This document shows, in pieces, positions 11,571 through 29,713 of a stretch of DNA of 64,000 nucleotides. Within the stretch, counting starts at the first letter, position 1, and every line of letters starts with the position of its first letter. Origin of the DNA: Chloroflexota bacterium (GTDB lineage: Bacteria; Chloroflexota; Anaerolineae; Anaerolineales; Villigracilaceae); the NCBI GenBank assembly GCA_019873735.1, contig JAIOAQ010000002.1, forward strand, positions 1 through 64,000. The letters run 5' to 3'. The notes beneath the pieces were generated by a model. It was not told the origin of the DNA. It ran no database searches and saw only the letters and a list, made by a program, of their open reading frames with translations. The translations under genes were made by a program, and so were the position numbers.

Positions 11571-12224
11571 ATGGCCGAAATCTTCTACCGCCACCTGCCC
11601 CACCTCCACCTGCCCAACGCCACCTACTTCATCACCATCCGGCTGGCAGGCAGCCTGCCTCTCGACGCCCTGGCACGGCTGCAGCAAGAGCACGAACAGC
11701 AGGAACGGCTGCTCAAAGCGCGTTTGCAGGGACAGGCGTTGGTAGAAGAACGTTACAAACTCCAGAAAAAGTTCTTTGCCCGCTACGACCAGATGCTCGA
11801 CGCCGCCATACACGGGCCGCGCTGGTTGGCAGAGCCGCGCGTGGCCGAAATTGTTGCCGGCGAAATCCATGCCCTACACCCTGAATACTATCATCTGCAA
11901 GCCTATTGCCTGATGAGCAATCATGTACATCTGCTCATAGATCAACAAGACATTCCCGAGCCCCCGCCGCGCAAGGACGGAAAACGTTACACTGCGCTCA
12001 GCCGGGCGATGAGACAACTGAAAAGCAAAAGTGGCTATGCCTGTCTCCAGCAAATTGGGCAACATGGCGATTTTTGGCAACATGAAAGTTACGATCATGT
12101 AGTAAGAAACGAAAATGAATTCCAGCGAATCCTGACCTATATCATCGAGAACCCGGTCAAAGCCGGGTTGGTAAAAGAATGGCAACAGTGGCCATACACT
12201 TACGTTAATCCGGAGTTGTTGTAG
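11571..12224 (+). mobile_element. REP-associated tyrosine transposase (RAYT, Y1_Tnp/IS200-like)
   Basis: YFITIRLAGSLP, LMSNHVHLLI (HUH motif), YIIENPVKAGLV: Y1 transposase family; flanked by REP hairpins on both sides. Confidence 0.88.
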
Positions 12225-12276
12225 GACAACTCTTAAGAGTTGTCCTACTACAAGAGTTGTCCTACAAGAGTTATCC
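12221..12276. repeat. REP palindrome downstream of RAYT
   Basis: GTAGGACAACTCTTAAGAGTTGTCCTAC perfect 28-nt palindrome followed by half-site copies; RAYT stop TAG lies inside it. Confidence 0.75.
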
Positions 12277-12371
12277 AAAATTCTGGCAACCTGCAATCAA
12301 ATTCGTGATCGTCAACCCACTTCCCCTCCCTGCAGGGGAGGGGCCAGGGAGAGGTCCCAAGGAGCAAAAGC

Positions 12372-15300
12372 ATGAACCTTACCTTGAAAATCAACGGCAC
12401 TTCTTACGAAATCGAAACCTCCCCATCGGCGAGCCTGCTTTCGGTCATTCGCTCGCTGGGCTTTCACTCGGTTAAATTCGGCGACGAGCACGGTCTGACA
12501 GGCGCGGACACGGTGCTGCTGGACGGCCGCCCGGTCAACGCGGCGGTGATGCTCGCCGCTCAGGCGGAGGGACATCAGATCGCCACGCTGGAGGCCCTCG
12601 GCGAACACCCCGAACAGGGCTGGAAAAAGACCGGCGGCTTGCACCCGCTTCAGCAGGCTTTCATCGAGAGCGGCGCAATTCAGTGCGGATACTGCACCCC
12701 GGCGCAGATTCTCGCCGCCAAGGCCCTGCTCGACCGCAACCCCAACCCGACCGAAGCCGAAGTGCGCGAAGCCATCGCCGGCGTGCTGTGCCGCTGCACG
12801 GGCTACGTCAAGCCGGTGCAAGCGGTGTTGAAGGCGGCGGCGGTGATGAGGAAAGAACCAGTAATCAGTGGACAGTTATCAGTGATCAGTGGACAGTCAT
12901 CAGTGATCGGTGAGCAGTTGCCCGGCAAAGACGAGGGAACGGAGTTGCCCCCCGCCACGCCCGGCGACAGGACGATGACACAGCCGCGCACCATGCCGAA
13001 AGTCATCATCGCTCCCGAAACCGACGGCTGGCAAACGGTCGGCAAGCCCGAGGTCAAGGTGGACGCGGTCAAACTGGCGCAGGGCAAGCCGGCCTTCGCT
13101 GCCGATTTCGAGAAGCGCGGCCTGCTCTACGCCAAAGTCCTGCGCTCGCCGCATGCCCACGCCCGCATCAAGCGCATTGACGCCAGCCGCGCCCGCGCCC
13201 TGCCCGGCGTGGCCGCCGTCCTGACCTGGCAGGACATCCCGCGCGTCGTCTATTCCACCGCCGGCCAGTCCGACCCGATTCCGGGTCCGCTCGACACGTT
13301 CTCGCTCGACAACAAAGTCCGCTTCGTCGGCGACCGGGTGGCCTTCGTCGCTGCCGAGACGCCCGAAATTGCCGAGGCGGCGCTGAAACTGATTGACGTG
13401 GAGTACGAAGTCCTGCCGGCCGTGTTGGACGTGCGCGAGGCGACGAAACCCGACGCGCCGGTCATTCACGATGAGCCGGAATACGTGCCGTTTGCCGTCT
13501 GCGACCCGCAAAAGAACCTGGCCGCCGAGATCCGCATTGACATCGGCGACGTGGAGAAAGGCTTTGCCGAGGCGGACGAAATCTTCGAGGCCGAGTACGT
13601 CGTTCCGAAGGTGCAGCAGGCGCACATCGAACCGCACGTCGCCCTGACGTATTGGGACGAGGACGACCGCCTCGTCATCCGGACCTCGACCCAGGTCCCG
13701 TTTCACGTGCGCCGGCAACTCGCCCCGGTGCTGGGACTGCCGGTCAAGCGCATCCGCGTCATCAAGCCGCGCATCGGCGGTGGATTCGGCGGCAAGCAGG
13801 AGGTCCTCATGGAAGACGTGGCCGCTCACCTGACGATCGCCACCGGCCGCCCGGTTCTCTACGAATACACCCGCGAGGAAGAGTTCATCGCCGCCCGTTC
13901 GCGCCACCCGATGCGCATCCGCCTGAAGACGGGCGTCAAGCGCGACGGGACGATCACTGCCAACGAAATGTACGCCCTCTCGGATACGGGCGCCTACGGC
14001 TGCCACGCCTTGACCGTGACCGGCAACACCGGCCACAAGTCCATGGCGCTCTACGTCGGCGACGGCGAATACCGCAAAGCACCCAACATCCGCTTCTACG
14101 CCGACATTGTGTACACCAACACGCCGCCGGCCGGGGCCTACCGCGGCTACGGCGTGCCGCAGGGATTTTGGGCGGTGGAGCGGCACATGGAAAAAATTGC
14201 CCGCGCCCTGGGCCTCGACCCGCTCGAATTCCGGCTGAAGAACGCCCTGCGGCCCGGCGAGTACCATCCATTCAGCACCGCCTGGAACGAGGGCCGCGAG
14301 CCGCGCCCGGAGATCATCCACACCGTTGGGCTGGAGGAATGCGTCCGCCAGGGCAAGGCGGCGATCGGCTGGGATCAGAAGTTTGGGAATGAGGAATGGC
14401 ATGTAGGACGGGCTTTTAGCCCGTCTGGACAGGCTGAAAGCCTGTCCCACAAGCGCAAAGGCATCGGCGTTGCCCTGGTCATGCAAGGCACCGCCATCCC
14501 CTACCTGGACATGGGCGGGGCTTCGATCAAGATGAACGACGACGGCTCGTTCAACCTGCTGATCGGCGCAACCGACCTCGGCACCGGCTCGGACACCGTC
14601 CTGGCGCAGATGGCCGCCGAGGTGTTGGGCGTGCCGACCGAAGACATCCTGGTCTATTCGTCCGACACCGACTTCACGCCCTTCGACAAGGGCGCGTATG
14701 CCTCCTCGACAACCTACATTTCCGGCACAGCCGTCACCAAAGCGGCGCAGATTTGCGCCGAGCGCATCAAGATTCGGGCGGCGAAGATGCTGAATGAAAA
14801 GGTAGATAAGTACACAAGTACACAGGTCAAGGCGGAGGAGATACGCCTGGCAGAGAAAAAGGCCATCGCGCCAGATGGAAGGTCGGTAACTCTGACCGAA
14901 ATCGCCCTCGACAGTTTGCACCGCAACGAACAGGAGCAAATCATGGGCGTGGCGTCATACGTCTCGCCCTCCTCGCCGCCGCCGTTTGCTGCCCAATTTG
15001 CCGAAGTGACCGTGGACACCGAAACCGGTCAGGTGACGGTGGACAAACTGGTCATGGCGGTTGATTCGGGCGTCATCGTCAATCCGCTCACCGCTTCGGG
15101 GCAGATCGAAGGCGGCATGACGCAGGCCCTCGGCTACGCCGTCTGCGAAGAGATGACCTGGGACGAGCAGGGGCGCATCCGTCAACGTGACTTCGACCGC
15201 TACCACATCTTCCGCGCCGATGAAATGCCCGAACTGGAGACCATCTTCGTCGAGACCTTCGAGCCGACGCACCCGTTCGGGGTCAAAGCCGTGGCCGAAA

Positions 15301-15431
15301 TCCCGATGGACGGCGTCGCCCCGGCGGTGGGCAACGCCGTGCTGGACGCGGTCGGCGTGAACGTTGACGAGAACCCGGTCACGCCGGAGAAGGTCTGGCG
15401 GGCGATTGTCGCTGGTCAAACAGGGAAATAG
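12372..15431 (+). CDS. Fused [2Fe-2S] small subunit plus molybdopterin large subunit of xanthine dehydrogenase-like hydroxylase
   Basis: N-terminal CGYCTPAQILAAKALLDRNPNP and CRCTGYVKPV (2Fe-2S); C-terminal Ald_Xan_dh_C2 motifs (GGGFGGKQEV, PPAGAYRGYGVPQG, AVGNAVLDAVG). Confidence 0.9.
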   Translation: MNLTLKINGTSYEIETSPSASLLSVIRSLGFHSVKFGDEHGLTGADTVLLDGRPVNAAVMLAAQAEGHQIATLEALGEHPEQGWKKTGGLHPLQQAFIESGAIQCGYCTPAQILAAKALLDRNPNPTEAEVREAIAGVLCRCTGYVKPVQAVLKAAAVMRKEPVISGQLSVISGQSSVIGEQLPGKDEGTELPPATPGDRTMTQPRTMPKVIIAPETDGWQTVGKPEVKVDAVKLAQGKPAFAADFEKRGLLYAKVLRSPHAHARIKRIDASRARALPGVAAVLTWQDIPRVVYSTAGQSDPIPGPLDTFSLDNKVRFVGDRVAFVAAETPEIAEAALKLIDVEYEVLPAVLDVREATKPDAPVIHDEPEYVPFAVCDPQKNLAAEIRIDIGDVEKGFAEADEIFEAEYVVPKVQQAHIEPHVALTYWDEDDRLVIRTSTQVPFHVRRQLAPVLGLPVKRIRVIKPRIGGGFGGKQEVLMEDVAAHLTIATGRPVLYEYTREEEFIAARSRHPMRIRLKTGVKRDGTITANEMYALSDTGAYGCHALTVTGNTGHKSMALYVGDGEYRKAPNIRFYADIVYTNTPPAGAYRGYGVPQGFWAVERHMEKIARALGLDPLEFRLKNALRPGEYHPFSTAWNEGREPRPEIIHTVGLEECVRQGKAAIGWDQKFGNEEWHVGRAFSPSGQAESLSHKRKGIGVALVMQGTAIPYLDMGGASIKMNDDGSFNLLIGATDLGTGSDTVLAQMAAEVLGVPTEDILVYSSDTDFTPFDKGAYASSTTYISGTAVTKAAQICAERIKIRAAKMLNEKVDKYTSTQVKAEEIRLAEKKAIAPDGRSVTLTEIALDSLHRNEQEQIMGVASYVSPSSPPPFAAQFAEVTVDTETGQVTVDKLVMAVDSGVIVNPLTASGQIEGGMTQALGYAVCEEMTWDEQGRIRQRDFDRYHIFRADEMPELETIFVETFEPTHPFGVKAVAEIPMDGVAPAVGNAVLDAVGVNVDENPVTPEKVWRAIVAGQTGK
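14404..14451. repeat. REP-like double hairpin inserted in frame inside the xdh large subunit
   Basis: GTAGGACGGGCTTTTAGCCCGTCTGGACAGGCTGAAAGCCTGTCCCAC, 48 nt (16 codons), encodes VGRAFSPSGQAESLSH. Confidence 0.8.
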
Positions 15432-15432
15432 T

Positions 15433-15554
15433 GTAATTGCCCACCCTTAACCCTCCCGCAGGTTAGAAGAGGGCCGGCAAGCCATACCGGCAATCATTGA
15501 GACGTCTTCTGGCCTGGAAATTCGGTCAAAACCTGCGGGAGGGTAGGTAGTTAC
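15433..15554. mobile_element. MITE-like element, copy 1 (about 122 bp)
   Basis: GTAATTGCCCACCCTTAACCCTCCCGCAGG...CCTGCGGGAGGGTAGGTAGTTAC; near-identical to copy at 55321; no clear TSD here. Confidence 0.75.
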
Positions 15555-15649
15555 CAACAACAGGAAAGTCTTTCCCTGAAAAGTAAAGAAAACCATCGAC
15601 AAGCCAGCCAGCAAAGGCACAGAATGGTGTAAAATCATTCCAAGAGCCT

Positions 15650-16006
15650 ATGACGCTTCAAATTCCTCCAACAGTAGCCCCTACAGGTTTTCCCCCGGTC
15701 GCAGAGACGCTGATGGCGGCAGTCGAGAAGATTGTCAACTCGCTCCACCCGCAAAAAATTATTCTCTTTGGCTCTTACGCTTACGGGCAACCTACACCCG
15801 ATAGCGATGTGGATTTGCTGGTCATCATGGAAACGGACAAGCCTCCTCGCGAACGGGTCGTGGCAGTTTCGCTGGCGTTGTATCCCCGCCCTTTCCCGGT
15901 GGACATTCTGGTCAAGACCCCGCGTGAATTAGAGGAAGAGGCGCCCCGCAACTTTTTCCTGCGTGAGATCATAGAGAGGGGGGTGGTTTTATATGAGCGT
16001 AGATGA
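15650..16006 (+). CDS. MNT nucleotidyltransferase-domain protein (antitoxin of HEPN-MNT pair)
   Basis: IILFGSYAYGQPTPDSDVDLLVIME: GSxxxGxxxxxSDxDL motif. Confidence 0.85.
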   Translation: MTLQIPPTVAPTGFPPVAETLMAAVEKIVNSLHPQKIILFGSYAYGQPTPDSDVDLLVIMETDKPPRERVVAVSLALYPRPFPVDILVKTPRELEEEAPRNFFLREIIERGVVLYERR

Positions 16007-16376
16007 CCCTGTCGAATGGGCACGTTATGCCGAAGAAGACTGGAATGTAGCCGCCTCGCTCATGCGGCGGAAACATCCTCCTTCCACGGCAATTTGTTTC
16101 CACGCTCAGCAAAGCGCAGAAAAATATCTCAAAGCCCTTTTGCTCGCCAGCAAAGTCAACTTCCCAAAAACGCATGATTTGGCTGCCCTGAACTCCCTGT
16201 GCGAACAACATGGCATTCTGACCGGATTCTCGCCACAGTTGCTGACCCTGCTGACCGATCACGCGGTTGCGGCGCGTTATCCCGGCCAGGAACCAACGCT
16301 GGAAGAAGCCCGCCAATCCCTGGAAATTGCCAAAAGCGTGCGCAAGTTTGTCCGCAAGTGGCTGGGAATGAAGTAA
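15993..16376 (+). CDS. HEPN-domain protein (toxin of HEPN-MNT pair)
   Basis: Overlaps MNT gene by 14 nt; WNVAASLMRRKHPPSTAICFHAQQSAEKYLKALLLA...ARYPGQEP: HEPN signature. Confidence 0.85.
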   Translation: MSVDDPVEWARYAEEDWNVAASLMRRKHPPSTAICFHAQQSAEKYLKALLLASKVNFPKTHDLAALNSLCEQHGILTGFSPQLLTLLTDHAVAARYPGQEPTLEEARQSLEIAKSVRKFVRKWLGMK

Positions 16377-16449
16377 CCGTTCATCCCGCCTTGGTTGCCA
16401 GCCTTGTTATGACCTTCAGAAGGATTAAAAACTGAGATTTGCCCCACGC

Positions 16450-16489
16450 AAAAAGCGCCCGCGGCGGGGAGCATTCCCAGGCCGCGGGC
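16450..16489 (-). terminator. Rho-independent terminator downstream of the DGR template repeat
   Basis: Minus strand GCCCGCGGC-CTGGGAATGCTCCCC-GCCGCGGGC-GCTTTTT; 9-bp perfect stem. Confidence 0.75.
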
Positions 16490-16608
16490 AAATTCAATAT
16501 TTGCCCGGCGCAGCGAGCGCGGGCAGGAGCCGGCCCGGCCATCATCCAAAAGCCTCGGCAGGGCAGGGATGCCCGCCCCGCATTTCTGGCATCTTCGCAG
16601 GATAATGT

Positions 16609-16718
16609 AGAGCAAACCAAACGAAAACCGACGTTGTTGTTGAAGTTGTCGGGTTCGTTCCTGTTGCGGTAAGCGCAACGGGCGTTGTTTCGATTGTTGT
16701 TCCACGCGCCGCCGCGCA
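16609..16718 (-). repeat. DGR template repeat (TR)
   Basis: 110 nt; minus strand encodes ..[35 protein letters not shown] (AAC-rich); matches VR at 18234..18347 with differences at TR adenines. Confidence 0.95.
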
Positions 16719-16746
16719 CCTGAGGGCCGCCCCTTCACCACGCGCC

Positions 16747-17097
16747 TTACGGCGCGGCAGTGACTGTCTTTTGCCAACCGCCCAAGAGTCTGCCTATTTC
16801 TGCCACCATTTTCGAGACGTGACGGTATTGTGCAGAAGTGAGCCAGCCCCACTTCTCACACAAACGCAGATACAGGCGCACCTTGCGCAACTCCGTATCC
16901 GCAGCACGCAACAATTCAGCGCGCCGGGTGTTCCTGCAGGCGTTGGCCTCAATGAGCAACTCTTGAAAATTCAGCGCCGCATTGTGCAAACGCTGGGTGA
17001 CTACAAAACGTTGACTGCGTGGGAAACCTTCAGCAACCGGAATCAGCCAGGTGATAAAGTCATAAGTGCGGGTAAAAATCACCATTTCTTCAGACAT
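16747..17097 (-). CDS. avd: DGR accessory protein Avd (four-helix-bundle)
   Basis: 116 aa helical protein between RT and TR; overlaps RT 3' end by 8 nt; Avd/S23-like pattern. Confidence 0.88.
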   Translation of the reverse strand: MSEEMVIFTRTYDFITWLIPVAEGFPRSQRFVVTQRLHNAALNFQELLIEANACRNTRRAELLRAADTELRKVRLYLRLCEKWGWLTSAQYRHVSKMVAEIGRLLGGWQKTVTAAP

Positions 17098-18130
17098 AGA
17101 GCAAGCCTGTATCAGCCAGCAATTTTTCTCTCAGATGGAAGGTATTACCATGGGAGGCATGATTCAGCCAACCCTGCAACGAGGCGCGCAAACATGACAG
17201 GGGAACACCCTCGCGCAGCAGCCTCCAAATTTTACGCCGGAAGGCATATCCTTTGCGCGCCTTCAAACGGCGATGAGTAGGAAAGACAATAAAGCCCAAA
17301 AATGGAATACCCTGCGTCACCGGCCTCGGGTGGGCGGCGCCGCAATGCAGAGTCAGCCGCAAGCGCGCCAAACGCTCAAGGATTCTATCCCGCCAGTCCA
17401 TCAATTGCTTTTTATCATTTCCAAACAGAAGAAAATCATCTACATAGCGCAGGTAGGCTTTGCAGCCCAACTCGCGGCGAACAAAATGATCGAAAGGATT
17501 AAGATAGCAGTTTGCCCACCATTGCGAAGTCAGATTGCCAATCGGCAGGCCGCGCGGCCGGTTAATAGCAAACAAATCATCGCCGGGGAAATACACCATG
17601 TCATACTCTTCTGCCAGCACACCGCGCCCGCTAAGCAGGATGCGTTCAATAAGCCACATGACACTCTCATCAGGGAGCATTTTACGCAGCGTCTCGACCA
17701 GAATGGCATGGTCAATCGAAGGGAAAAACTGCACAACATCACAGGGCAAAACGTAACGGAAACGGCGCGCATACCCCTGGCAGGTATCCAGCGCACGATG
17801 TGTACCCTTCCCTACCCGATTGGCAAAACTATTGGCAATGAACAGGCGCTCGAAATACGGCGTGGTGACCAGGCATAAAGCATGATGTACCACCCGGTCG
17901 CGAAAAGGCGCAGCGGAAATCAGACGCCTTTTGGGTTCGTGAATATAGAAAGAATGATAGGCTCCCGGCTGCCAGGTTTGTTCGCGCAATTCCCCTTCCA
18001 GCGCCAACAACTGGTCAGCCAGGTCAAATTCGAAGGCGGCCGTGGCGCCCCGCCCGCGCTTGCCGCGGGCGGCCTTGTCATACGCCAGGCGCAGGGTTTC
18101 CCATGCACACAATTGATCTTGAAGCGTCAT
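17090..18130 (-). CDS. DGR reverse transcriptase
   Basis: RT motifs: YLRYVDDFLLF catalytic site; GLPIGNLTSQWWANCYLNPFDHFV with the IGNxxSQ motif typical of DGR RTs. Confidence 0.95.
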   Translation of the reverse strand: MTLQDQLCAWETLRLAYDKAARGKRGRGATAAFEFDLADQLLALEGELREQTWQPGAYHSFYIHEPKRRLISAAPFRDRVVHHALCLVTTPYFERLFIANSFANRVGKGTHRALDTCQGYARRFRYVLPCDVVQFFPSIDHAILVETLRKMLPDESVMWLIERILLSGRGVLAEEYDMVYFPGDDLFAINRPRGLPIGNLTSQWWANCYLNPFDHFVRRELGCKAYLRYVDDFLLFGNDKKQLMDWRDRILERLARLRLTLHCGAAHPRPVTQGIPFLGFIVFPTHRRLKARKGYAFRRKIWRLLREGVPLSCLRASLQGWLNHASHGNTFHLREKLLADTGLLYV

Positions 18131-18185
18131 ATAAAAACTCCAAAAATTTTTAACGCGGCCCGCCTTACGGCGGGGAAGGGCGAGT

Positions 18186-18222
18186 CAGAGATTCAGAGTC
18201 CAGAGATTCAGAGTTCAGAGAT
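18186..18222. repeat. 15-bp tandem repeat immediately 3' of the VR
   Basis: CAGAGATTCAGAGT(C/T) repeated about 2.4 times. Confidence 0.8.
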
Positions 18223-21200
18223 GGGGATGATGGAGAGCAAACCAAACGAAAACCGACGCTGTCGTTGAAGTCGTCGGGTCCGAGCCTGAAGCGGGAAGCG
18301 CAACGGGCGAAGTTTGGACCGCTTGTTGTTCCACGCGCCGCCGCGCAGAACACGCTCTTCACCGTGTTCGGGCCCAAAGGGGTCACGGACGGCCTGCCCG
18401 GCGCACAAGCGGTACGTTTCGGGCGCATACCAATCCGCACACCATTCCCAAACATTGCCGGCCATATCGAGAAGCCCACGGGGGGTGTTGCCGCGCGGGT
18501 AAGCGCCAACGGGTGAAGGCCTCATCACCCGCCCCTCCAGGGTGTTGGCGCAATCGGGCTGCCAGCGGCTGCCCCAGGGCCAGAGGGCTTGCTGCGCCCT
18601 GTCTCCCAGCCAGCGGGCGGCTTTCTCCCATTCCGCCTCGCTCGGCAGGCGGATCCGCCAGCCGGCGGGCAGGCGGTTAAGGGCGCGCAGCGCCGCCTCC
18701 AGCCAGGCAGCGTAGGCGCAAGCCTCGTACCAGGTGACGCCGATTACCGGCTGATTCTCCCCCATGAACTCGCCCTGCCCCCACAGAAAAGGACGGACAA
18801 CACGGCCGCGTTCATCGCGCTTTTGCGCTTCGAAGCGCTCCCACTGCTGGCGCAGGGCATCGTCCTGCATGCGCATCTGTTCACGATACCATTCTGCCTG
18901 CGCAGGAGAGAGCGCGCCGCGGCGCACCAGCGCCTCGATTTGTTTCAACACCCGGGCCTCGTTTTGGCGCAGAAGCCGAATATAGCGCGCCTGATAACTT
19001 TCCTCAAACGGCAGAGGGGCATCGCGCCAGCGGCGGGCGCCGGGCGCCTGCCAGTAGGCGTCGTCTTCGTAACCGCCCGACTCGATGAAACAGCGGTACT
19101 CGGCCACCGTCACCGGCCAGCGGGCGATCTCAAAAGCGCTGACAAAGAGGCGGTGGGCGGGGAGTTCGTCGGCGGCGGGCGAAAAGCGGTGAAAGAGCAT
19201 CAGTGAGAGGGCCTGGCGGGGTGTGCAGCCCCTGACATATTCGCCAGCCGGAATGGTCACCCAATCGGGTTCAATGCAGGCGGCCTCCTTCCCAAAGGCG
19301 CCCGGCAAGGCATGGCGCCGCCCCAGCAGGCGCGGGTCGCCCAGACGGGCCAGGGTGCGGCCGGCCTCCAGGCGGGCAGGCAGGCGGGCGCCGGGGGATT
19401 GCAATTCGTCCAGCAGGCGGCTGCGGAGGGTTTTGAGCGTTTGTTCGGGAAGGTCGAAGCCGGCCTGCAGGGCAATCTGCCCGGCGAGAGGGCGGTTATC
19501 GTTCATTACGGCTTGCAGCAAGCGCTCGGCCTGCTGCGGCGGCAATAAGCCGGCTGCCAGGATGATGGTCTCTTCCCAGCCGGTGCGCGGCGGGGGCGGC
19601 AAAGGGTCCCAGCGGCTGCGGACAAACTTCCAACGCCGCCAGGGCGTGCGCCACTTGGAGCGCAAATTGCGGGCCTGAGCGAAGCGGCGGGCAAATTCAC
19701 GGGCGGCGAAAAACTCTTGCAAGAGTTGATGCTGAAAACGCACACTGAAGGGAGTGAGATCGAGCAGGCTGCAATCGCGCCCCAGTGCCAGCAAATCTTC
19801 GGCAGAGAGGGCCGTCTGGGCGGCGCCCAGGATACGGCAGGCTTCGGCGCGGGAGAAGGTGTAGTTTTGGCTGCGCTCCAGTCCACGCCAGGCCAGGCGG
19901 GTCAGTCCATCTGCAAAAGCCTGACGATGCTCATCGGTAAGCAAACGTCCGCCGGGGCGGGCAGCCTCGTAATCCAGCCAGGTGCAGATGAATTGATCCA
20001 GCAAGGCAGCACGGTTGGGCGGCAGGCCGCTCTGCCCGCTCAGGCGGGTGAGCATGACCAGCCAGAAAGGGATTTGCGCCAGGGCGAACATGTCGCCGCG
20101 GCCTTCGCGGCGGTCCTGTTCCAATTGCTGCCAGAGGGTTGCGGCACGTCCGGGCAGGCGTTTTTCGAGGAAGGCGCGAATGCGCTCTTCGTCCATGTCA
20201 TGAATCACCAGGCGCGGCGCGGCAATGCCTTCGCCATAATCGGCAATGCGGCAGGCCACCAGGGCGCGGTTGCCGCGTCCGGCGAATTCATCGCTGTGCA
20301 AAAAAGCGCGCCACTGCGCCAGGCGCGTCTCGTAGCCGGCGCGCGGCATTTCGTTCAGGCCATCGGCAAAGAGCCAGATTTGCCCATTTGCCAGCGCCTC
20401 ATCCAGGCCATCGAATCCCAGAGCCGCCTTCCAGGCCTGGCGCAGGAAGGTGAGCGGCGTGCCGCTGCGATGGGCGCTGAGCGAGACGAAGAACGGCAGG
20501 CGTTCGGCAGAGTCGGCCAGGCGGCGCTCCACCTGCAAACGGGCAAAACGGCGCATCAGCGTGCTTTTGCCGGCGCCCGGCTCACCAAGCAAGGCAAGGA
20601 CGGCATAGGGCTGGCCGGTGCGTTCATCGGTGGCCTGCAGGGCTTCCTCGAGGTTCTTAAAGGTCCGTTGTTCGCGAAAAAGTTGCTCCGGGTTGAAGGG
20701 TTGGGCGCCGAGGCGCAGCCGCCCGGTCAGCCGCGCCCACCATGAGCGTGGTTCCTCCGATCCGCCCAGGTGCAATCCCAGGCGCGGCGTCAATTCTTCG
20801 CTCAAACCGCCCTCGAGGGGAACGTAGAACTGCTCTTCAGAGGGTTTGAGAGGGAGTTCGTGTTGGCGCAGGGCACGCAGGTAAGCGTCCAGGTCAGCAG
20901 CCGGGTCTTTGGGGTCAAGAGAGCGCCGCAAGTCGCTCAGGTAATTCTCTTCCCGCCGCTGAATTTCCTCTGCCGTTGGCGGCCTGCCGCGCAAGAGCGG
21001 CAGCGAACGCGCCCAGTCTTCAATCCGCCCTTGCAGCACTTTGCCCACCGGGGTAAGGAGGAAAGAGAGCAGGGCCGCCAGCGCCAGCAGAAGCAGGCCG
21101 GGCACACCGTAGGCCTGCCAGATATCGGGCAGGCATTTGCGCAAACCATCGGTCAGGCAGGAAACGATCGGGCTTTCGGGCGGCGGAGCAGGCGTCGCGG

Positions 21201-21291
21201 TCGCAGGAGCAGGCGGGGTAACCCCTGCGGGCGACGTGCAGGCCGCCAGGAAGGAAAGAAAGAGGAGCCAAAAGAAATTTTTCCAGCGCAT
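18208..21291 (-). CDS. DGR target: N-terminal lipobox/TM, NACHT NTPase, C-terminal FGE-sulfatase (CLec-fold) domain with VR; C-terminus frameshifted in VR
   Basis: ORF 18208..21627; Met at 21291 (MRWKNFFWLLFLSFLAACTS); Walker A LLGEPGAGKSTLMRRFA; FGE motifs (WVTIPAGEYVRG, RLPSEAEWEKAARW, GNVWEWCADW, RVLRGGAWNN). Confidence 0.93.
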   Translation of the reverse strand: MRWKNFFWLLFLSFLAACTSPAGVTPPAPATATPAPPPESPIVSCLTDGLRKCLPDIWQAYGVPGLLLLALAALLSFLLTPVGKVLQGRIEDWARSLPLLRGRPPTAEEIQRREENYLSDLRRSLDPKDPAADLDAYLRALRQHELPLKPSEEQFYVPLEGGLSEELTPRLGLHLGGSEEPRSWWARLTGRLRLGAQPFNPEQLFREQRTFKNLEEALQATDERTGQPYAVLALLGEPGAGKSTLMRRFARLQVERRLADSAERLPFFVSLSAHRSGTPLTFLRQAWKAALGFDGLDEALANGQIWLFADGLNEMPRAGYETRLAQWRAFLHSDEFAGRGNRALVACRIADYGEGIAAPRLVIHDMDEERIRAFLEKRLPGRAATLWQQLEQDRREGRGDMFALAQIPFWLVMLTRLSGQSGLPPNRAALLDQFICTWLDYEAARPGGRLLTDEHRQAFADGLTRLAWRGLERSQNYTFSRAEACRILGAAQTALSAEDLLALGRDCSLLDLTPFSVRFQHQLLQEFFAAREFARRFAQARNLRSKWRTPWRRWKFVRSRWDPLPPPPRTGWEETIILAAGLLPPQQAERLLQAVMNDNRPLAGQIALQAGFDLPEQTLKTLRSRLLDELQSPGARLPARLEAGRTLARLGDPRLLGRRHALPGAFGKEAACIEPDWVTIPAGEYVRGCTPRQALSLMLFHRFSPAADELPAHRLFVSAFEIARWPVTVAEYRCFIESGGYEDDAYWQAPGARRWRDAPLPFEESYQARYIRLLRQNEARVLKQIEALVRRGALSPAQAEWYREQMRMQDDALRQQWERFEAQKRDERGRVVRPFLWGQGEFMGENQPVIGVTWYEACAYAAWLEAALRALNRLPAGWRIRLPSEAEWEKAARWLGDRAQQALWPWGSRWQPDCANTLEGRVMRPSPVGAYPRGNTPRGLLDMAGNVWEWCADWYAPETYRLCAGQAVRDPFGPEHGEERVLRGGAWNNKRSKLRPLRFPLQARTRRLQRQRRFSFGLLSIIPISEL
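18234..18347 (-). repeat. DGR variable repeat (VR), 114 nt
   Basis: Aligns with TR 16609..16718; substitutions at TR adenines, plus a 4-nt insertion; shared 3' block GTCGGTTTTCGTTTGGTTTGCTCT is the IMH-like region. Confidence 0.95.
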
Positions 21292-21625: not shown

Positions 21626-22972
21626 ATGAGCGACCGCGTCTACGTCATCGGCCATGTCAACCCGGATACCGACACCATCGCCGCGGCGATGGGCTACGCC
21701 TGGTTGCTGCACGAACGCGACCTGGCCGACACGGTGCCGGCGCGCGCCGGGGCCGTCAACCCGCAGACGGCCTGGGTCTTGAAGAAAGTCGGCCTGGAGC
21801 CGCCGCTGCTGCTCAATGACGCCTCGCCGCGCTTCGAAGCCGTCGCCCTGCGGCTGGATACCGCCCTGCCCGATGCCCCCCTGCGCGAAGCCTGGGCAAT
21901 CGCCTCACGCACCTGGGGCGTGGCCCCGATCGTCACCGAGGAGGGCGTCCCGTTCGGCCTGGTGACCGGCAAGAGTCTGTTTGGGCTGGTCAGCCAACTG
22001 GTCGGTCCGAACCCACAGCGGCGCGACATCCGCCTGACGGAGATTCTCGATACCCCCTGCCGCGAAGCCTGCGACACCCGCGTCCCCAAATTCGCCTTCA
22101 ACGGACGCATCCGCGACTCGCTCAACCGCATCCTGCGCGAAGAGGGCGACGACTTCTTCGTGGTAGACGAAAAGGGCAACTACATGGGCGTCTGCCGTCA
22201 GCGCGACCTGCTCAACCCGCCGCGGCTCAAGGTCATCCTGGTGGACCACAACGAACCGCGCCAGGCGATCGCCAACCTGGAAGAAGCCGAACTGCTCGAG
22301 ATTCTCGATCACCATCGGCTGGGCAACCCGTCCACGCACGTGCCGATCAAATTCACGGTGGACATCGTCGGCTCGACCAGCACCCTGGTCTCGGAAAAAA
22401 TCGAAGAGGCCGGCCTCTCGGCCCCGCCGCCGATCGCCGGGATGCTGCTGGCCGGCCTGCTGTCGGATACGCTCATCCTGACCTCGCCCACCACCACCGA
22501 GCGTGACAAGAAGGCCGCCGAGCGGCTGGCGCGCTGGGCCTTTGTCCGCAGCGGGCCGCTGGCCGGGGAGACGATTCAGTCGTACGGTCAGCAGGTGTTG
22601 AACGCCTCGGCCGGCCTGGCGGCGCGCGCCCCGGAGGAAATCGTCAGCACCGACCTGAAACTATACGAAGCGGGCGGCTACCGCTTTGCGATTGCCCAGG
22701 CCGAAGTCACCGACCTGGTGCAATTGACCGAGACCCAAGAAAAACTGCTCACCGCCCTGACCGCCCTGCGCGACAAACGCGCCCTCGACTTTGTCATGCT
22801 GATGGTCACCGATGTGGTGCGCGGCTCCAGCCGTCTGCTGCTGACGAACGAGCCGCCCGAACTCTCCGACCTGCCCTACCCGCCCCAACCGGATGGCACC
22901 CGCCTGGCCGAAGGTGTGGTCTCGCGCAAGAAGCAATTGCTGCCGGTGGTGTTGGGGCTGCTGGAGAGGTAA
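21626..22972 (+). CDS. ppaC: Manganese-dependent inorganic pyrophosphatase (DHH/DHHA2) with internal CBS domains
   Basis: YVIGHVNPDTDTIAAAMGYAW; LVDHNEP; EILDHHRLGN; CBS-like insert between. Confidence 0.9.
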   Translation: MSDRVYVIGHVNPDTDTIAAAMGYAWLLHERDLADTVPARAGAVNPQTAWVLKKVGLEPPLLLNDASPRFEAVALRLDTALPDAPLREAWAIASRTWGVAPIVTEEGVPFGLVTGKSLFGLVSQLVGPNPQRRDIRLTEILDTPCREACDTRVPKFAFNGRIRDSLNRILREEGDDFFVVDEKGNYMGVCRQRDLLNPPRLKVILVDHNEPRQAIANLEEAELLEILDHHRLGNPSTHVPIKFTVDIVGSTSTLVSEKIEEAGLSAPPPIAGMLLAGLLSDTLILTSPTTTERDKKAAERLARWAFVRSGPLAGETIQSYGQQVLNASAGLAARAPEEIVSTDLKLYEAGGYRFAIAQAEVTDLVQLTETQEKLLTALTALRDKRALDFVMLMVTDVVRGSSRLLLTNEPPELSDLPYPPQPDGTRLAEGVVSRKKQLLPVVLGLLER

Positions 22973-22985
22973 ACAAGTCACCGGC

Positions 22986-24188
22986 ATGCACAATAAACGA
23001 TTGCTCAAGATAGCGCTGGGTATTTTTGTTTGCGTCCTTGCTGCCTGCTCGCCAACCGGCGAACCACTTGCAACCCCAACATTTGCCCCGTCTGCAACAG
23101 CCACGCCTGTCCCCAATCCAACCGCATCTGTAACGCCCACCGCTGTCCCAACAGAAATGCCGTTCTACCTGTCTGTGACGGTCTGGCCCTCCGATCCGGT
23201 TGCCCCTATCCTTGTCTACCATCAGTTCAAATCTTCAAGCAGTCAATCCACCATTAACAAGGTGACGTATTCGGATTTCCGCGCGTCGCTTGAAAGGCTA
23301 TACCAGAGCGAATATGTCAGCGTACCGCTTGAACAATGGCTGGCCGGAGATCTGCGCCTGGCAGCGGGAAAACGCCCGCTTATTTTCAGCATGGACGACC
23401 TTTTCTATCGCAACCAGATCAAACTCATGCCCGACGGAACCCCATCCACAGAGACGGGTCTGGGAATTGCCTGGCAGTTTTACCAGGAATACCCAGAGTT
23501 TGGTTTCCATTGGGCGCTATTTGCCTCGCTCGGAGATAAGCCTTATGGCAGCGCTCCCTACCCTGAGTGGGAGCAACAGTTGACAGACGTGATCATCTGG
23601 TGCCTGGAACACAACGCCAAAATCTATAACCATACCTACCGCCACGCTCAATTAAGCCAGACAGACGGCATTGGGGTAAAGGCCGAACTCGCCTGGAACG
23701 ACCAATACCTGCGCAAACTCTTGAGGAAGGCTGGACGCGAAGATCTGATCGCCGGCCTGGGAAATATCTTTGCCATCCCCTATGGCAAATGGCCGCGTTC
23801 GCAGGATGGACAAAACGCAATTGTCAACTACAAAAACCCGGAGGGACTGCCCATTCAGGCAGCCATGGATGTGGATTTCATAACGCGGCCGGCCTTCATG
23901 CAGCCGCCTTATACAGCAGGGTTCAACCGCTGGCGCGTGCCGCGCATGGTGGCTAACCTTAAAGCGATTGATTATCTGGTTGAGAATCGGGAAAAAATCC
24001 CCGCGGCTCAAGCCTGCCGGCTTGGACCGTTAGAGGAGAGCCGCATTGGAGAATCTGCTTATCTCCAGGAGCAAATTGGCCATGCAATCCGAGACAAGCA
24101 GTGCGGGCCGGGAATTTACGCGACAGAATATTTCGTCTTCCGCGCCACCGAAACACAGGTCGAGTTGATACACACGGTAAGAAAATAA
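22986..24188 (+). CDS. Polysaccharide deacetylase-like lipoprotein
   Basis: Lipobox (FVCVLAACSPTG); PVAPILVYHQF...RPLIFSMDD; NodB-like layout. Confidence 0.7.
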   Translation: MHNKRLLKIALGIFVCVLAACSPTGEPLATPTFAPSATATPVPNPTASVTPTAVPTEMPFYLSVTVWPSDPVAPILVYHQFKSSSSQSTINKVTYSDFRASLERLYQSEYVSVPLEQWLAGDLRLAAGKRPLIFSMDDLFYRNQIKLMPDGTPSTETGLGIAWQFYQEYPEFGFHWALFASLGDKPYGSAPYPEWEQQLTDVIIWCLEHNAKIYNHTYRHAQLSQTDGIGVKAELAWNDQYLRKLLRKAGREDLIAGLGNIFAIPYGKWPRSQDGQNAIVNYKNPEGLPIQAAMDVDFITRPAFMQPPYTAGFNRWRVPRMVANLKAIDYLVENREKIPAAQACRLGPLEESRIGESAYLQEQIGHAIRDKQCGPGIYATEYFVFRATETQVELIHTVRK

Positions 24189-24251
24189 ACCGACACCCAT
24201 GGAACAAAAGGTCCAACCACACACATTAGCCCACACTAAGAAGAGTAAGCC

Positions 24252-25049
24252 ATGAAATCCATTTTTCAAGCCCTCGCCGAACTCGAAGCCACACACCAGC
24301 CTGCCGCCCTGTGCACAGTGGTCAAAACCAGCGGCTCGACCCCGCGTCACAGCACCAGCAAAATGTTGGTCTATCCTGATGGCCGTATCCTCGGCACGGT
24401 CGGCGGCGGGGAACTGGAAAACCGCGTCCGTCAGGAGGCGCTGGCCTCCATCCAGGACGGGAAACCCCGCCTGCTCAGTTACAACATGACCGATCCCTCA
24501 CGCGGCGATGTGGGCGTGTGCGGCGGTCAAGTGGAGGTATTTGTGGAACCGATTCTCCCGCCCCCCATGATCGTAGTCGTCGGCGGCGGGCATGTAGGCA
24601 AAGCGGTGGCGCACCTGGCCAAATGGCTCGGCTTCCGAGTCGCCGTCAGCGACGACCGGCCCGAATTTTGCACCCCCGAAGCCAACCCCGACGCCGACGA
24701 ATTCTACAACTGCCCACTGGCCGAACTGCCGCTCCATCTCACCATCACCCCGCAGACTTTCCTCGTCCTGACGACGCGCGGCTCGCAAGTAGACGCCGCC
24801 GGCCTGCCCGCCCTGCTGGAGACGCCCGCCGCCTACATCGGCGTCATCGGCTCCCGGCGGCGCTGGGCCGAGACCTGCAAATTGCTCAACGAAGCGGGCA
24901 TCTCCGACGAACAGTCGAAGCGCGTCCACTCGCCCATCGGGCTGGGCATCGGCGCCGAAACGCCCGAGGAGATCGCCGTCAGCATTCTGGCCGAAATCCT
25001 GATGTTGCGCGGCGGCGGTTCGGGCAGACAGATGAAAGAGCCAAAGTAG
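24252..25049 (+). CDS. XdhC/CoxI family molybdenum-hydroxylase maturation protein
   Basis: ALCTVVKTSGSTPRHSTSKMLV, GGGHVGKAVAHLAKWLGFRVAVSDDRPEF, GVIGSRRRW. Confidence 0.88.
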   Translation: MKSIFQALAELEATHQPAALCTVVKTSGSTPRHSTSKMLVYPDGRILGTVGGGELENRVRQEALASIQDGKPRLLSYNMTDPSRGDVGVCGGQVEVFVEPILPPPMIVVVGGGHVGKAVAHLAKWLGFRVAVSDDRPEFCTPEANPDADEFYNCPLAELPLHLTITPQTFLVLTTRGSQVDAAGLPALLETPAAYIGVIGSRRRWAETCKLLNEAGISDEQSKRVHSPIGLGIGAETPEEIAVSILAEILMLRGGGSGRQMKEPK

Positions 25050-25058
25050 GCCGCGGCA

Positions 25059-25637
25059 TCAGTTTCGGCTCAAATACTCCGCGATGACCGTATCATAACG
25101 GGCGGTCGCGCGGAAGCCTTTAACGGCCAGCCGCTTGCGGGTCTCGGCTCGGACTCCGCCGGAGGCGGCTTCCGCTAAAACGGCAGGATAATCCGCCGGA
25201 TCGCAGACGAGCGTGACGCGCTCGTGGTTCTTGGCCGCCGCCCGGATGAGCGTCACGCCGCCGATATCAATATTCTCGATCACCTCGGCGTAGGTCACAC
25301 CCGGCCTGGCAATGGTGCTCTCGAAAGGGTACAGGTTAACCGCCACCAGGTCAATATAGTCCCAGCCAAGGCGGAGGAGTTCCTGACGGTCTTCTTCGGT
25401 CGGACGCGCCAGCAGGCCGCCATGGATGGCCGGATGCAGGGTCTTCACCCGCCCGCCCAGAATTTCAGGGGAGTGAGTATAGTCCGCCACCTCGGTGACT
25501 TCCACACCACTTTCGCGTAAAAGCCTTGCCGTGCCGCCAGAGGCGAGCAAACGCCACCCCAGAGATGCCAGCCCGCGGGCGAAATCGAGCAGACCGGTCT
25601 TGTCGTACACAGAAAGAATGGCTTGAGGCATTAACAA
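25059..25637 (-). CDS. purH: IMP cyclohydrolase (PurH N-terminal domain only)
   Basis: [66 protein letters not shown]; ends at 192 aa. Confidence 0.9.
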
Positions 25638-26224
25638 CTCCTTTCCAGAACGGCTTTAAGCGTGTCCACCAACAAGCGATGCTCCACTTCATGAACCCGC
25701 GCCTCAAACGTTTCCAGCGTCTCGCCTGGGTTGAAGAAAATCTCTTCCACCCCCAGGACGGGACCGGCATCCACCCCCTCGTCGGGGACGAGATGCACCA
25801 TCACGCCCGAACGGTCAATCTCGCCCCGCGTCCAGGCAGCATAGGCGCGCTCGATCGCATGCGTGCCGGGAAAGGCGCCGGGCAAGGCCGGATGCAAATT
25901 GATCACCCGGTTGGGAAAGCGGCCAAGAAAAGCCATGGTCAACAGACGCATCCAACCGGCCAGGATGACATACTCCGGAGCATGGGCCGCGACCGCCTCG
26001 GCGAGACGGTCATCGTACTCTTGGCGGGATTCGCCCTCCCGCTTCGGGAAAGCGATCGCCGGGACGCCGGCCCGCCGCGCCCGTTCCAGACCGTAGGCCT
26101 CCGGCCGGTTAGAGAAGACGGCGGTCACACGCGCCGGCAGAGTTCCATCGGCGCAGGCATCCAGAATGGCCTGCAGATTGCTGCCGTTTCCGGAAATCAG
26201 GATAACAAGACGAGAGATTCCCAT
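25631..26224 (-). CDS. purN: Phosphoribosylglycinamide formyltransferase
   Basis: [57 protein letters not shown]. Confidence 0.92.
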
Positions 26225-26231
26225 AAGCCAG

Positions 26232-27419
26232 TTAGTGGTGAAACAAGCGCACACCGGAGAAGACCATCACCATGCCGTATTCGTCACAGGCGCGGATGAC
26301 CTCCTCGTCGCGGGTCGAGCCGCCAGGCTGAAGGACATACTTCACGCCGGAGAGCGTCGCCCGGTCAATCGAGTCGCGGAAAGGGAAAAAGGCGTCCGAA
26401 CCGAGCGTTACGCCGGTCAGTTTGTCCAACCAGGCGCGCCGCTCCGCCGGCGAAAGCGGCTCGGGAATCTCGGCGAAAACGTCTGCCCAGCCGGCTTTTT
26501 CGGCAGCAGTGACATCGGGCTGCAGATACTGGTCAATGGCATTGTCCCGATCGGGGCGCTTGACCTCGGGCCGGAACTTCAGCCCAAGCACGGCCGGGTG
26601 CTGACGCAGCCACCACAAGTCCGCCTTCAGGCCGGCCAGACGGGTGCAGTGGACGCGCGATTGCTGCCCGGCCCCCACGCCAATGACCTGGCCGTTCAGA
26701 GCATAACAGACCGAGTTAGACTGGGTGTACTTGAGCGTAATCCAGGCCACGATCATATCGCGCACGGCGTTCTCGGGTAAATCTTTGTTAGCCGTGACCA
26801 CATTCGAGAAATCCTCAGGCGTCACGGCGCGGTCGTTGCGGCGCTGCTCGAAGGTGAGACCAAAGACTTCGCGGCTCTCCAGTTCGCCGGGCGTGTAATC
26901 CGGGTCAATCTGGATCACGACGTACTTGCCGTCTTTTTTATTTTTCAAGATCTCGAGCGCCTGCGGTTCATAAGCCGGGGCAATGACTCCGTCCGAAACT
27001 TCGCGCCCCAGCAGAGCGGCCGTCGAGGCATCCACCACGTCCGAGAGGGCGACGAAATCGCCGAAAGATGACATCCGGTCGGCGCCGCGGGCGCGGGCAT
27101 AGGCGGTCGCCAGCGGCGAGAGGACCATGTCGTCCACAAAACAGGCTTTCTGCAGGGCCGTGGACAGAGGCACGGCCACCGCCGCGCCGCTCGGGCTGAC
27201 ATGCTTGAACGAGGCCGCCGCCGGCAGGTTCAGAGCCGCCCGAAGTTCGCGCACCAACTGCCAGCCGTTGAGCGCGTCGAGCAAGTTAATATAGCCCGGC
27301 GAGCCGTTCAGGACGGTGATCGGCAGGTCGCCGTCCCTGACGTAAACCCGGGCCGGGGTCTGGTGGGGATTCGTACCATAGCGCAAGGGGAGTTCAGCGG
27401 GCATAAAATTCTCCTTCAT
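26232..27419 (-). CDS. purH: AICAR formyltransferase (stand-alone PurH C-terminal domain)
   Basis: [68 protein letters not shown]. Confidence 0.9.
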
Positions 27420-29713
27420 TCCAAAATGACAGTTCGTTCTCCGGAAATCAATTCGCCGATCACATAGGTCTCCTCGTCAATGGCCTGCTGGAAAGCCCGC
27501 ACCCCGTCTCTGGCGACGACGGCCATCATCCCAATGCCCATGTTGAAGACGCGGTGCATCTCGAACGAATCCAGCGCGCCGAGGGATTGAATCAGGCAAA
27601 AGAGGGGAGGAACCGGCCAGGTGCCGCGGCGGACGAGGGCGGCAACCCCCTCGGGCAGGACGCGCGGGAGGTTTTCGATAAAGCCGCCGCCGGTAAGATG
27701 GGCCAGAGCCTTGAGATGCGGCGCAGCGCCAATCAGCGGCCACAGCAGGGACAGGTAGGAGCGGTGCGGCGCCAGCAGCGCCTCGCCCAAGGGGATGCCC
27801 AGTTCAGGGAACACCGTATCGAGCGGAACATTCTCGAAGATGCGGCGGATGAGCGAGTAGCCGTTGGTGTGCGGCCCAGACGAGCGCAGACCGACCAGCA
27901 CGTCGCCGGGAACGATTCCCGGGCGCGGCAAAGCGGAGGCGCGCTCCAGCACACCGACGATTGTCCCGGCCAGATCGAACTCGCCCTCGGCGTAGACGCC
28001 GGGCATCTCGGCCGTCTCGCCGCCGAGCAGAGCCATCCCCGCGGCGCGGCAGGCTTCGGCTGCGCCGGTGACCACTTCGGCGACCAGGTTCGGGTCAAGT
28101 TTCGAGGCGGCAAAATAATCGAGAAAAAACAGCGGGCGGGCGCCTTGAACCAGGATGTCATCAATGCAGTGATTGACGATGTCATGGCCGATCGAACGAT
28201 AGCGGCCGACCGCGGCCGCCAGTTTGACTTTGGTGCCGACCCCGTCCGTCGAAGCGACCAGCACCGGCGACTTCATCTCCTTGAGCATCGCCGCATCGTA
28301 CAACCCGCCAAAGGCGCCGATCCCCGCCAACACTTCCGGCCCGTACGTGGAGCGGACGGCATCTTTCATCAGTTCGACGGCGCGGTTGCCGGCGTCAATA
28401 TCCACGCCCGCGGCGGCATAAGCGCCGCTCCGTCCCGCCGTCCGCCGCGCGGCGGGCAACGCTTGATGAGCAATATCCTTGCGATAGTGCATTCCTTCAA
28501 AACGAATCGACGCGACTGCGTCGTACGCCGATTGGACGGCTTCGGCCAGCGACCCGCCTCGTCCGGTGACCCCCAACACGCGCCCGCCGGCGGTAACGAG
28601 CCGTCCATCCACGATTCTTGTCCCGGCGTGGAAACAAAACACGTCGGGGGGCAAGGCATCCAGGCCGTGCACCGGTTTGCCGATCTCGGGCGCGGATGGG
28701 TAGCCCCTTGAGGCCAGCACCACACAAACGGCCGCGCCGTCTTTCCAGCGGACCTTGACCTCCTGGAGCCGCCCCTCGGCGCAGGCCAGCGCAATCTCCA
28801 GCAAATCCGATTCCAGCAGGGGCAGAACCGCCTGCGTCTCCGGGTCGCCGAAACGACAATTGAACTCCAACACCTGCGGGCCGCTCTCGGTCAACATCAA
28901 GCCGGCATACAAAACCCCGACGAATGGCCGCCCCTCCAATCGCAGACCGCTCACCGCCGGCTGAAGAACCGTCTCGGTAATTTCGGCCACCATCTCTGGC
29001 GGGCAAATCGGCACCGGCGCGTAAGCGCCCATTCCCCCTGTGTTTGGGCCCTGGTCGCCGTCCAGCAAACGCTTATGATCCTGGGCCGGGATCATCGGCG
29101 CCACCGTCCTGCCATCCGAAAAAGCCATCAACGAGACCTCCGGCCCGCGCAGGCGTTCCTCGATCACCACTTCCTCACCGGCCGCGCCGAACTCCCGATG
29201 CACCATCATCGCCTCCAGCGCAGCGCCGGCCTCCTCATTCGTCTCGGGCACGATCACGCCCTTGCCGGCTGCCAGGCCAGAAGCCTTGAGCACGACCGGA
29301 TAATCTACCCTCTTGAGAAACTCAACCGCCTCGGCATATCTCTGAAAGACGGCGTAGCGCGCCGTGGGAATGCCATGCCGGGCCATGAAATGTTTGGCAA
29401 AAACCTTCGACGCTTCTATCTGTGCCGCCGCCCTGGACGGGCCGAAGACCCTGAATCCAGAGGCCGATAAATCGTCCGCCAGCCCCGCCGCCAGCGGCGC
29501 TTCGGGGCCGATCAACACCAGGTCGATCCGCTTTTCCTTGCAAAAACGGACCACCGCGGCGTGATCCTCTATCTTCAGAGCCACGCATTCCGCCAGCGCC
29601 GCCATCCCAGGGTTGCCCGGCAAGACGTAGAGACGGCTCAGATTCGGCGACTGAGCCACCTTCCACGCAATGGCATGTTCCCTGCCGCCCGACCCCACCA
29701 AAAGCACATTCAC
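27416..29713 (-). CDS. purD: Fused phosphoribosylamine-glycine ligase (PurD) and AIR synthetase (PurM)
   Basis: N-terminal PurD ([16 protein letters not shown]..., [22 protein letters not shown]); C-terminal PurM ([19 protein letters not shown]..., [34 protein letters not shown]) in one 765-aa ORF. Confidence 0.93.

What the first reader, a model, noticed from the sequence alone, without database searches (positions are those of the whole stretch)
16450..21291. Complete DGR whose target is a membrane-anchored NACHT-FGE protein
Seen: on the minus strand, target gene (lipobox/TM, NACHT Walker A/B, FGE-sulfatase domain ending in GGAWNN), RT (IGNLTSQ, YVDD), 8-nt overlapping Avd, TR, then a strong hairpin-T terminator. 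Order target-RT-avd-TR differs from the classic BPP-1 order (target-avd-TR-RT). Family knowledge: DGR targets often carry VR at the end of CLec/FGE-fold domains. Inference: the diversified ligand-binding tip is coupled to a signalling NTPase, resembling a self-diversifying recognition/conflict system.
Basis: partly seen in the sequence, partly recalled or inferred. Interest (0 to 1): 0.88.

Follow-up and report, generated by a model that had tools for sequence, protein, structure and literature searches.

The report
DGR-diversified membrane NACHT sensor, frameshifted
This is a real self-mutating gene cassette (a diversity-generating retroelement) in an Anaerolineales-type Chloroflexota genome that rewrites the tip of a membrane-anchored, NLR-like NACHT-FGE protein; that kind of system is already published for multicellular bacteria, and here the rewritten tip carries a 4-base insertion that throws the sensor protein out of frame.

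Summary
The cassette is real: target, RT, Avd, template repeat (TR) and variable repeat (VR). TR and VR differ at 14 aligned positions, 12 of them TR adenines (P about 1e-6). Across 108 related TR/VR pairs, adenines are changed at 54% and other bases at 1-2%. The RT groups with DGR RTs (100/100) and away from group II RTs; Avd passes the NCBIfam cut-off. The target has an exported N-terminus (lipobox), a TM helix, NACHT and FGE/CLec domains, and its ortholog models like NOD2/NLRC4 plus FGE.

Three points were missed. (1) The VR is 4 nt longer than the TR, so the target reading frame breaks inside the VR; the FGE C-terminal core (ARCAS...GFR) sits in another frame. The closest relative is in frame. 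About 7% of related VRs carry frame-breaking indels. (2) The "terminator" is the last helix of a conserved, strongly covarying RNA 3' of the TR, probably the DGR spacer RNA. (3) Target-RT-avd-TR is the commoner order here (36 of 53 loci).

NACHT/STAND-CLec DGR targets in multicellular bacteria, filamentous Chloroflexi among the hosts, are already published (Doré 2024). This is a new member of a known kind, with a currently broken sensor allele that a further homing round should restore. Its immune role is inferred.

The parts
18208..21291 (-). DGR target ORF as it reads in the assembly: lipobox signal sequence, P/T-rich linker, TM helix, NACHT, FGE/CLec domain; frame broken inside the VR
20161..20601 (-). 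NACHT domain (Walker A GEPGAGKS)
   Evidence: Pfam PF05729 E 9.4e-7; ortholog model matches NOD2/NLRC4
18307..19269 (-). FGE-sulfatase (CLec-fold) domain; match stops at profile position 232 of 255 because of the frameshift
   Evidence: Pfam PF03781 E 8.8e-45; in-frame ortholog reaches 253 of 255
18225..18347 (-). variable repeat (VR)
18316..18319 (-). approximate place of the 4-nt insertion in VR relative to TR (placement ambiguous by several bases); fits an A-mutated tandem duplication of TR 'AACA'
18165..18315 (-). C-terminal FGE core (ARCASRFRLGPDDFNDSVGFRLVC...) in the other frame, open to a stop at 18165
18159..18174 (-). stem-loop CCCGCC-GTAA-GGCGGG about 50 nt after the VR; same sequence and offset in L033; candidate for the DGR stem-loop 3' of IMH
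17090..18130 (-). DGR reverse transcriptase (346 aa, IGNLTSQ, YVDD)
16747..17097 (-). Avd accessory protein, overlaps RT by 8 nt
   Evidence: NCBIfam NF033474 99.4 bits, cut-off 80; Pfam bAvd 1.8e-22
16600..16718 (-). template repeat (TR); 15 adenine-bearing variable codons, none able to mutate to a stop
   Evidence: 32 pairs, 25 with compensatory changes in 14 loci

Best explanation
It is a DGR of the cellular type that diversifies the C-terminal CLec (FGE) tip of a membrane-anchored NACHT protein. Proposed working: a transcript carrying TR and the structured 3' element is bound by RT and Avd; RT copies TR into cDNA with random bases opposite adenines; the cDNA replaces the VR at the end of the target gene, guided by the 3' IMH-like end and the stem-loop after it. 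The target N-terminus is exported, one TM helix brings the chain back, and the NACHT and CLec domains lie in the cytosol at the membrane, where the variable loops would recognise a ligand (most likely of phage or competitor origin) and trigger NACHT oligomerisation. In this assembly the VR carries a 4-nt insertion, best explained as a slippage error of mutagenic reverse transcription on the A-rich template, so this allele is out of frame. RT, Avd and the TR are intact, so a further homing round should restore the frame. Shown by sequence: cassette, adenine mutagenesis, domains, RNA covariation, frameshift. Inferred: topology, ligand, signalling, defence role, origin of the insertion, repair.
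For: A-specific TR/VR differences in the window and in 108 pairs. RT inside the DGR clade (100/100), best PDB match 8ub7, chain named only 'Reverse transcriptase' (to my knowledge the BPP-1 bRT-Avd complex), 1e-48 against 2.5e-14 for the next, a group II-type RT. Avd over cut-off. RT and Avd under strong purifying selection, dN/dS 0.06-0.08 against L033, dS high. Terminal A-to-C TR/VR difference in most pairs, as expected of IMH*/IMH. Stem-loop near +50 after VR. Covarying RNA 3' of TR: 91.9% of cells paired against 72.1% shuffled, covariation 0.618 against 0.232, at most 0.21 when slid. Ortholog (48% identity, in frame) models with NOD2/NLRC4 and FGE folds. Frame switch inside VR; every net insertion fits a TR-templated tandem duplication as well as a free insertion does. 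TR-templated restoration of a defective target is shown for the BPP-1 DGR reporter (PMC12875486). NACHT/STAND-CLec DGR targets as putative sensors: PMC10907252.
Against: No population reads, no transcript, no activity data. No effector gene was recognised next to the target. The frameshift means the assembled allele would not make the sensor. For the window alone the duplication fit is weak (44-45% of random 4-mers would fit as well). The adjacent HEPN-MNT pair is not a conserved neighbour.
Confidence: 0.75

Rival explanations
1. The frameshift is an assembly or consensus error: the true population is a mixture of in-frame VRs and the assembler joined variants wrongly.
For: The genome is a 71-contig draft and the VR would be hypervariable in a population. 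The other frame-breaking VRs also come largely from draft MAGs.
Against: The insertion fits a TR-templated duplication with changes at A only; length changes that are multiples of three make up 10 of 19 (counted), more than the third expected of random errors, though not significantly in the first set (P 0.07). Flanks carry almost no non-A mismatch.
Confidence: 0.3
2. The target is a decaying pseudogene and the DGR is on the way to loss.
For: The target ORF loses the end of its FGE domain. RT fragments, some with stop codons, occur in the family.
Against: RT and Avd are intact and under strong purifying selection, target dN/dS about 0.22 before the VR; the out-of-frame part is still open and shows almost only A-type changes, so the event is recent.
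Confidence: 0.25
3. The diversified protein is not a defence sensor but a receptor for other ligands (cell-cell contact, nutrient or regulatory signalling).
For: No PADLOC match for the target and no effector recognised at the locus; FGE/CLec domains bind many ligands.
Against: NACHT domain with NLR-like fold, 17 of 22 related targets carry NACHT and a few carry TIR or EAD1, the pattern published for putative conflict systems (PMC10907252).
Confidence: 0.3

Closest known systems
Clade 5 DGRs with STAND/NACHT-CLec targets (Thiohalocapsa PB-PSB1 DGR 3 and 6 and relatives; Doré et al. 2024, PMC10907252)
   Same: NACHT or STAND NTPase fused to a C-terminal DGR-diversified CLec/FGE domain; filamentous Chloroflexi among the hosts; membrane or periplasmic placement predicted for some targets.
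   Different: Single target here, often two there; no effector or adaptor domain found in or next to this target; VR frameshifted. Clade placement against their tree not tested.
BPP-1 DGR of Bordetella phage
   Same: RT, Avd, TR followed by a structured RNA, A-specific mutagenesis, an IMH-like 3' end and a stem-loop after the VR; avd-TR-spacer order kept.
   Different: RT lies upstream of avd rather than downstream of the spacer; target is a NACHT protein, not a phage receptor-binding protein.
Treponema denticola TvpA (PDB 2y3c)
   Same: Weak sequence match to the FGE/CLec part (5.8e-5); a DGR variable protein with a CLec fold (fold and role from my own knowledge).
   Different: TvpA has no NACHT domain (own knowledge, not tested here).
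Bacterial NACHT / Avs anti-phage STAND proteins
   Same: NACHT NTPase core with a C-terminal sensor.
   Different: Sensor is FGE/CLec and diversified; no known N-terminal effector; no PADLOC match.

Membership tests
Diversity-generating retroelement | TR/VR pair with differences concentrated at TR adenines | tested here: met
   12 of 14 at A, P 9e-7; 108 related pairs
Diversity-generating retroelement | RT of the DGR clade with IGxxxSQ in place of QGxxxSP | tested here: met
   IGNLTSQ; 100/100 split from group II-type RTs; 8ub7 1e-48
Diversity-generating retroelement | accessory protein Avd | tested here: met
   NF033474 above cut-off
Diversity-generating retroelement | VR at the end of an intact target reading frame | tested here: not met
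   4-nt insertion breaks the frame inside VR; met in L033 and L034. This lowers the claim 'complete', not the claim 'DGR', since all other parts are met.
Diversity-generating retroelement | active mutagenic homing in the population | not testable with these tools
   no reads; only one genome of this genus is held
Clade 5 STAND/NACHT-CLec DGR conflict system (Doré 2024) | target with NACHT/STAND NTPase and C-terminal CLec/FGE holding the VR | tested here: met
   (domain end lost to the frameshift in the window)
Clade 5 STAND/NACHT-CLec DGR conflict system (Doré 2024) | RT within Roux clade 5 / 5D | not tested
   reference sequences of the clade were not assembled; RT did not separate from the Nostoc RT
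Clade 5 STAND/NACHT-CLec DGR conflict system (Doré 2024) | effector or adaptor domain in the target or next to it | tested here: not met
   none found in the target or among the Pfam-scanned neighbours at 11571-16376 and 21626-25049; the paper reports targets without one, so this is not decisive
Anti-phage bNACHT/Avs | protects against phage | not testable with these tools
   no experiment

The most novel reading that the evidence does not exclude
The DGR acts as an error-and-repair switch for its own immune sensor: reverse transcriptase slippage on the A-rich template now and then puts the sensor out of frame (off), and the next homing event, templated by the in-frame TR, restores it with a new specificity, so a filamentous population always holds some sensor-null cells.
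Probability: 0.1. Interest if true: 0.6.

Novelty: new member of a known kind. Interest (0 to 1): 0.4.

Why it matters
It adds an Anaerolineales-type case to the proposed DGR-diversified NLR-like sensors, with a conserved covarying spacer-like RNA that had no Rfam match, and a first count in this group (about 18% length changes, about 7% frame-breaking inside the VR) of VR indels in assembled genomes. If the indels are real, sensor loss and restoration become directly testable by counting VR alleles in reads.

Tried and rejected
Insertion bias: the first 61 pairs gave 11 longer and 1 shorter VR (p 0.006); 108 pairs gave 12 against 7 (p 0.36), so the bias was dropped. Rfam match for the RNA: none. 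Second VR in the genome: none found. HEPN-MNT pair as a conserved partner: not supported. A same-genus relative for allele comparison: none held. Wu 2018 NAR and Handa 2025 Nature are not held, so AAC slippage is cited through PMC12875486. Surface clustering of VR residues was judged only from DSSP on the ortholog model: variable codons fall mostly between the strands 958-962, 977-981 and 995-998; no coordinates were available for a surface calculation.

Full report
Observation. On the minus strand the window holds a target ORF (18208-21291), an RT (17090-18130), an Avd that overlaps it by 8 nt (16747-17097), a TR (16600-16718) and a VR (18225-18347). Of 14 aligned TR/VR differences 12 lie at TR adenines (P 9e-7). 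The RT carries IGNLTSQ and YVDD, groups with DGR RTs at 100/100 support against group II-type RTs, and its best PDB sequence match is 8ub7 at 1e-48; the table names that chain only 'Reverse transcriptase', and that it is the BPP-1 bRT-Avd complex is my own knowledge. Avd passes NF033474. The genome has one RVT_1 match and one TR/VR pair.

Family context. The order target-RT-avd-TR is found in 36 of 53 loci of the first set; 17 have TR upstream of RT (counted). Across 108 distinct TR/VR pairs A is changed at 54%, C at 1.0%, G at 1.1%, T at 2.0%. Pairs were selected for at least 65% of mismatches at A, so the contrast is partly built in, but the selection asked for far less than was found. Most pairs also show one fixed A-to-C difference near the 3' end, usually 19 nt or more from the previous mismatch, as expected of an IMH*/IMH pair. 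A GC-rich stem-loop lies downstream of many VRs, often near +50; 57 of 107 reach shuffle P 0.05 or less, and the window and L033 share CCCGCCGTAAGGCGGG (the window alone is at 0.07).

RNA. About 140 nt after TR are conserved in 14 loci: 32 consensus pairs, 25 with compensatory changes, 91.9% of cells paired against 72.1% shuffled, covariation 0.618 against 0.232. By position it matches the spacer RNA that recruits RT and Avd in BPP-1 (described in PMC12875486). No Rfam family matched in 16300-18400.

Target. Lipobox LAAC, P/T-rich linker, TM helix, NACHT and FGE. Orthologs L034 and L036 have a hydrophobic signal-like N-terminus and a TM helix, which places NACHT and CLec in the cytosol if the N-terminus is exported (inferred). 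The L034 ortholog (48% identity, in-frame VR) models at pLDDT 78 and matches ToxD/FGE and NOD2/NLRC4. Of 22 related targets 17 have NACHT and 22 FGE; two have TIR, one EAD1. The neighbours that were scanned are the ORFs at 11571-16376 and 21626-25049; no effector was recognised there.

Frameshift. The VR has 4 nt more than the TR. A profile from 64 in-frame relatives matches the upstream part in one frame and the ARC...GFR core in another. L033, the closest relative, is ungapped and in frame. Of 108 pairs 19 have a net length change, 9 not a multiple of three; two of these (L149, L196) lie outside the A-rich part. Each net insertion is explained by a tandem duplication of TR sequence with A changes as well as by a free insertion; for the window alone this is weak (chance 0.44-0.45). 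PMC12875486 cites AAC-repeat slippage for indels in an earlier DGR survey.

Verdict. A genuine DGR with an NLR-like, membrane-anchored target, of a kind proposed by Doré et al. 2024 (PMC10907252). The assembled sensor allele is out of frame. RT and Avd are under purifying selection (dN/dS 0.06-0.08 with high dS; target 0.22 before the VR), so the system has been maintained until recently. Function in defence is an inference from domains and published proposals.

Noticed in passing
window 15650-16376 (+): MntA-like nucleotidyltransferase and HEPN pair, convergent with the DGR; not a conserved DGR neighbour.
   Followed up: partly
window 11571-12224 (+): Weak Y1_Tnp (IS200-like/REP-associated) transposase match, below Pfam cut-off.
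   Followed up: no
window 25059-29713 (-): Purine genes read from the ORF list: what look like split PurH halves, a PurN and a PurD-PurM fusion ORF of 765 aa; not tested by profile search.
   Followed up: no
window 16744-16753 and 18162-18171 (-): The same GCCGTAAGGC hairpin core lies just before TR and after VR, the only two copies in the window.
   Followed up: partly
G000:C5:121675-122061 and G000:C15:32487-32957 (L122, L123): Two further FGE-like matches in the genome; the TR search of the genome found no VR there.
   Followed up: no
L117 (Nostoc plasmid pn2): DGR with two formylglycine-type targets, avd and RT near ParA/ParB genes; a match to the window's TR region lies downstream of the RT.
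   Followed up: no
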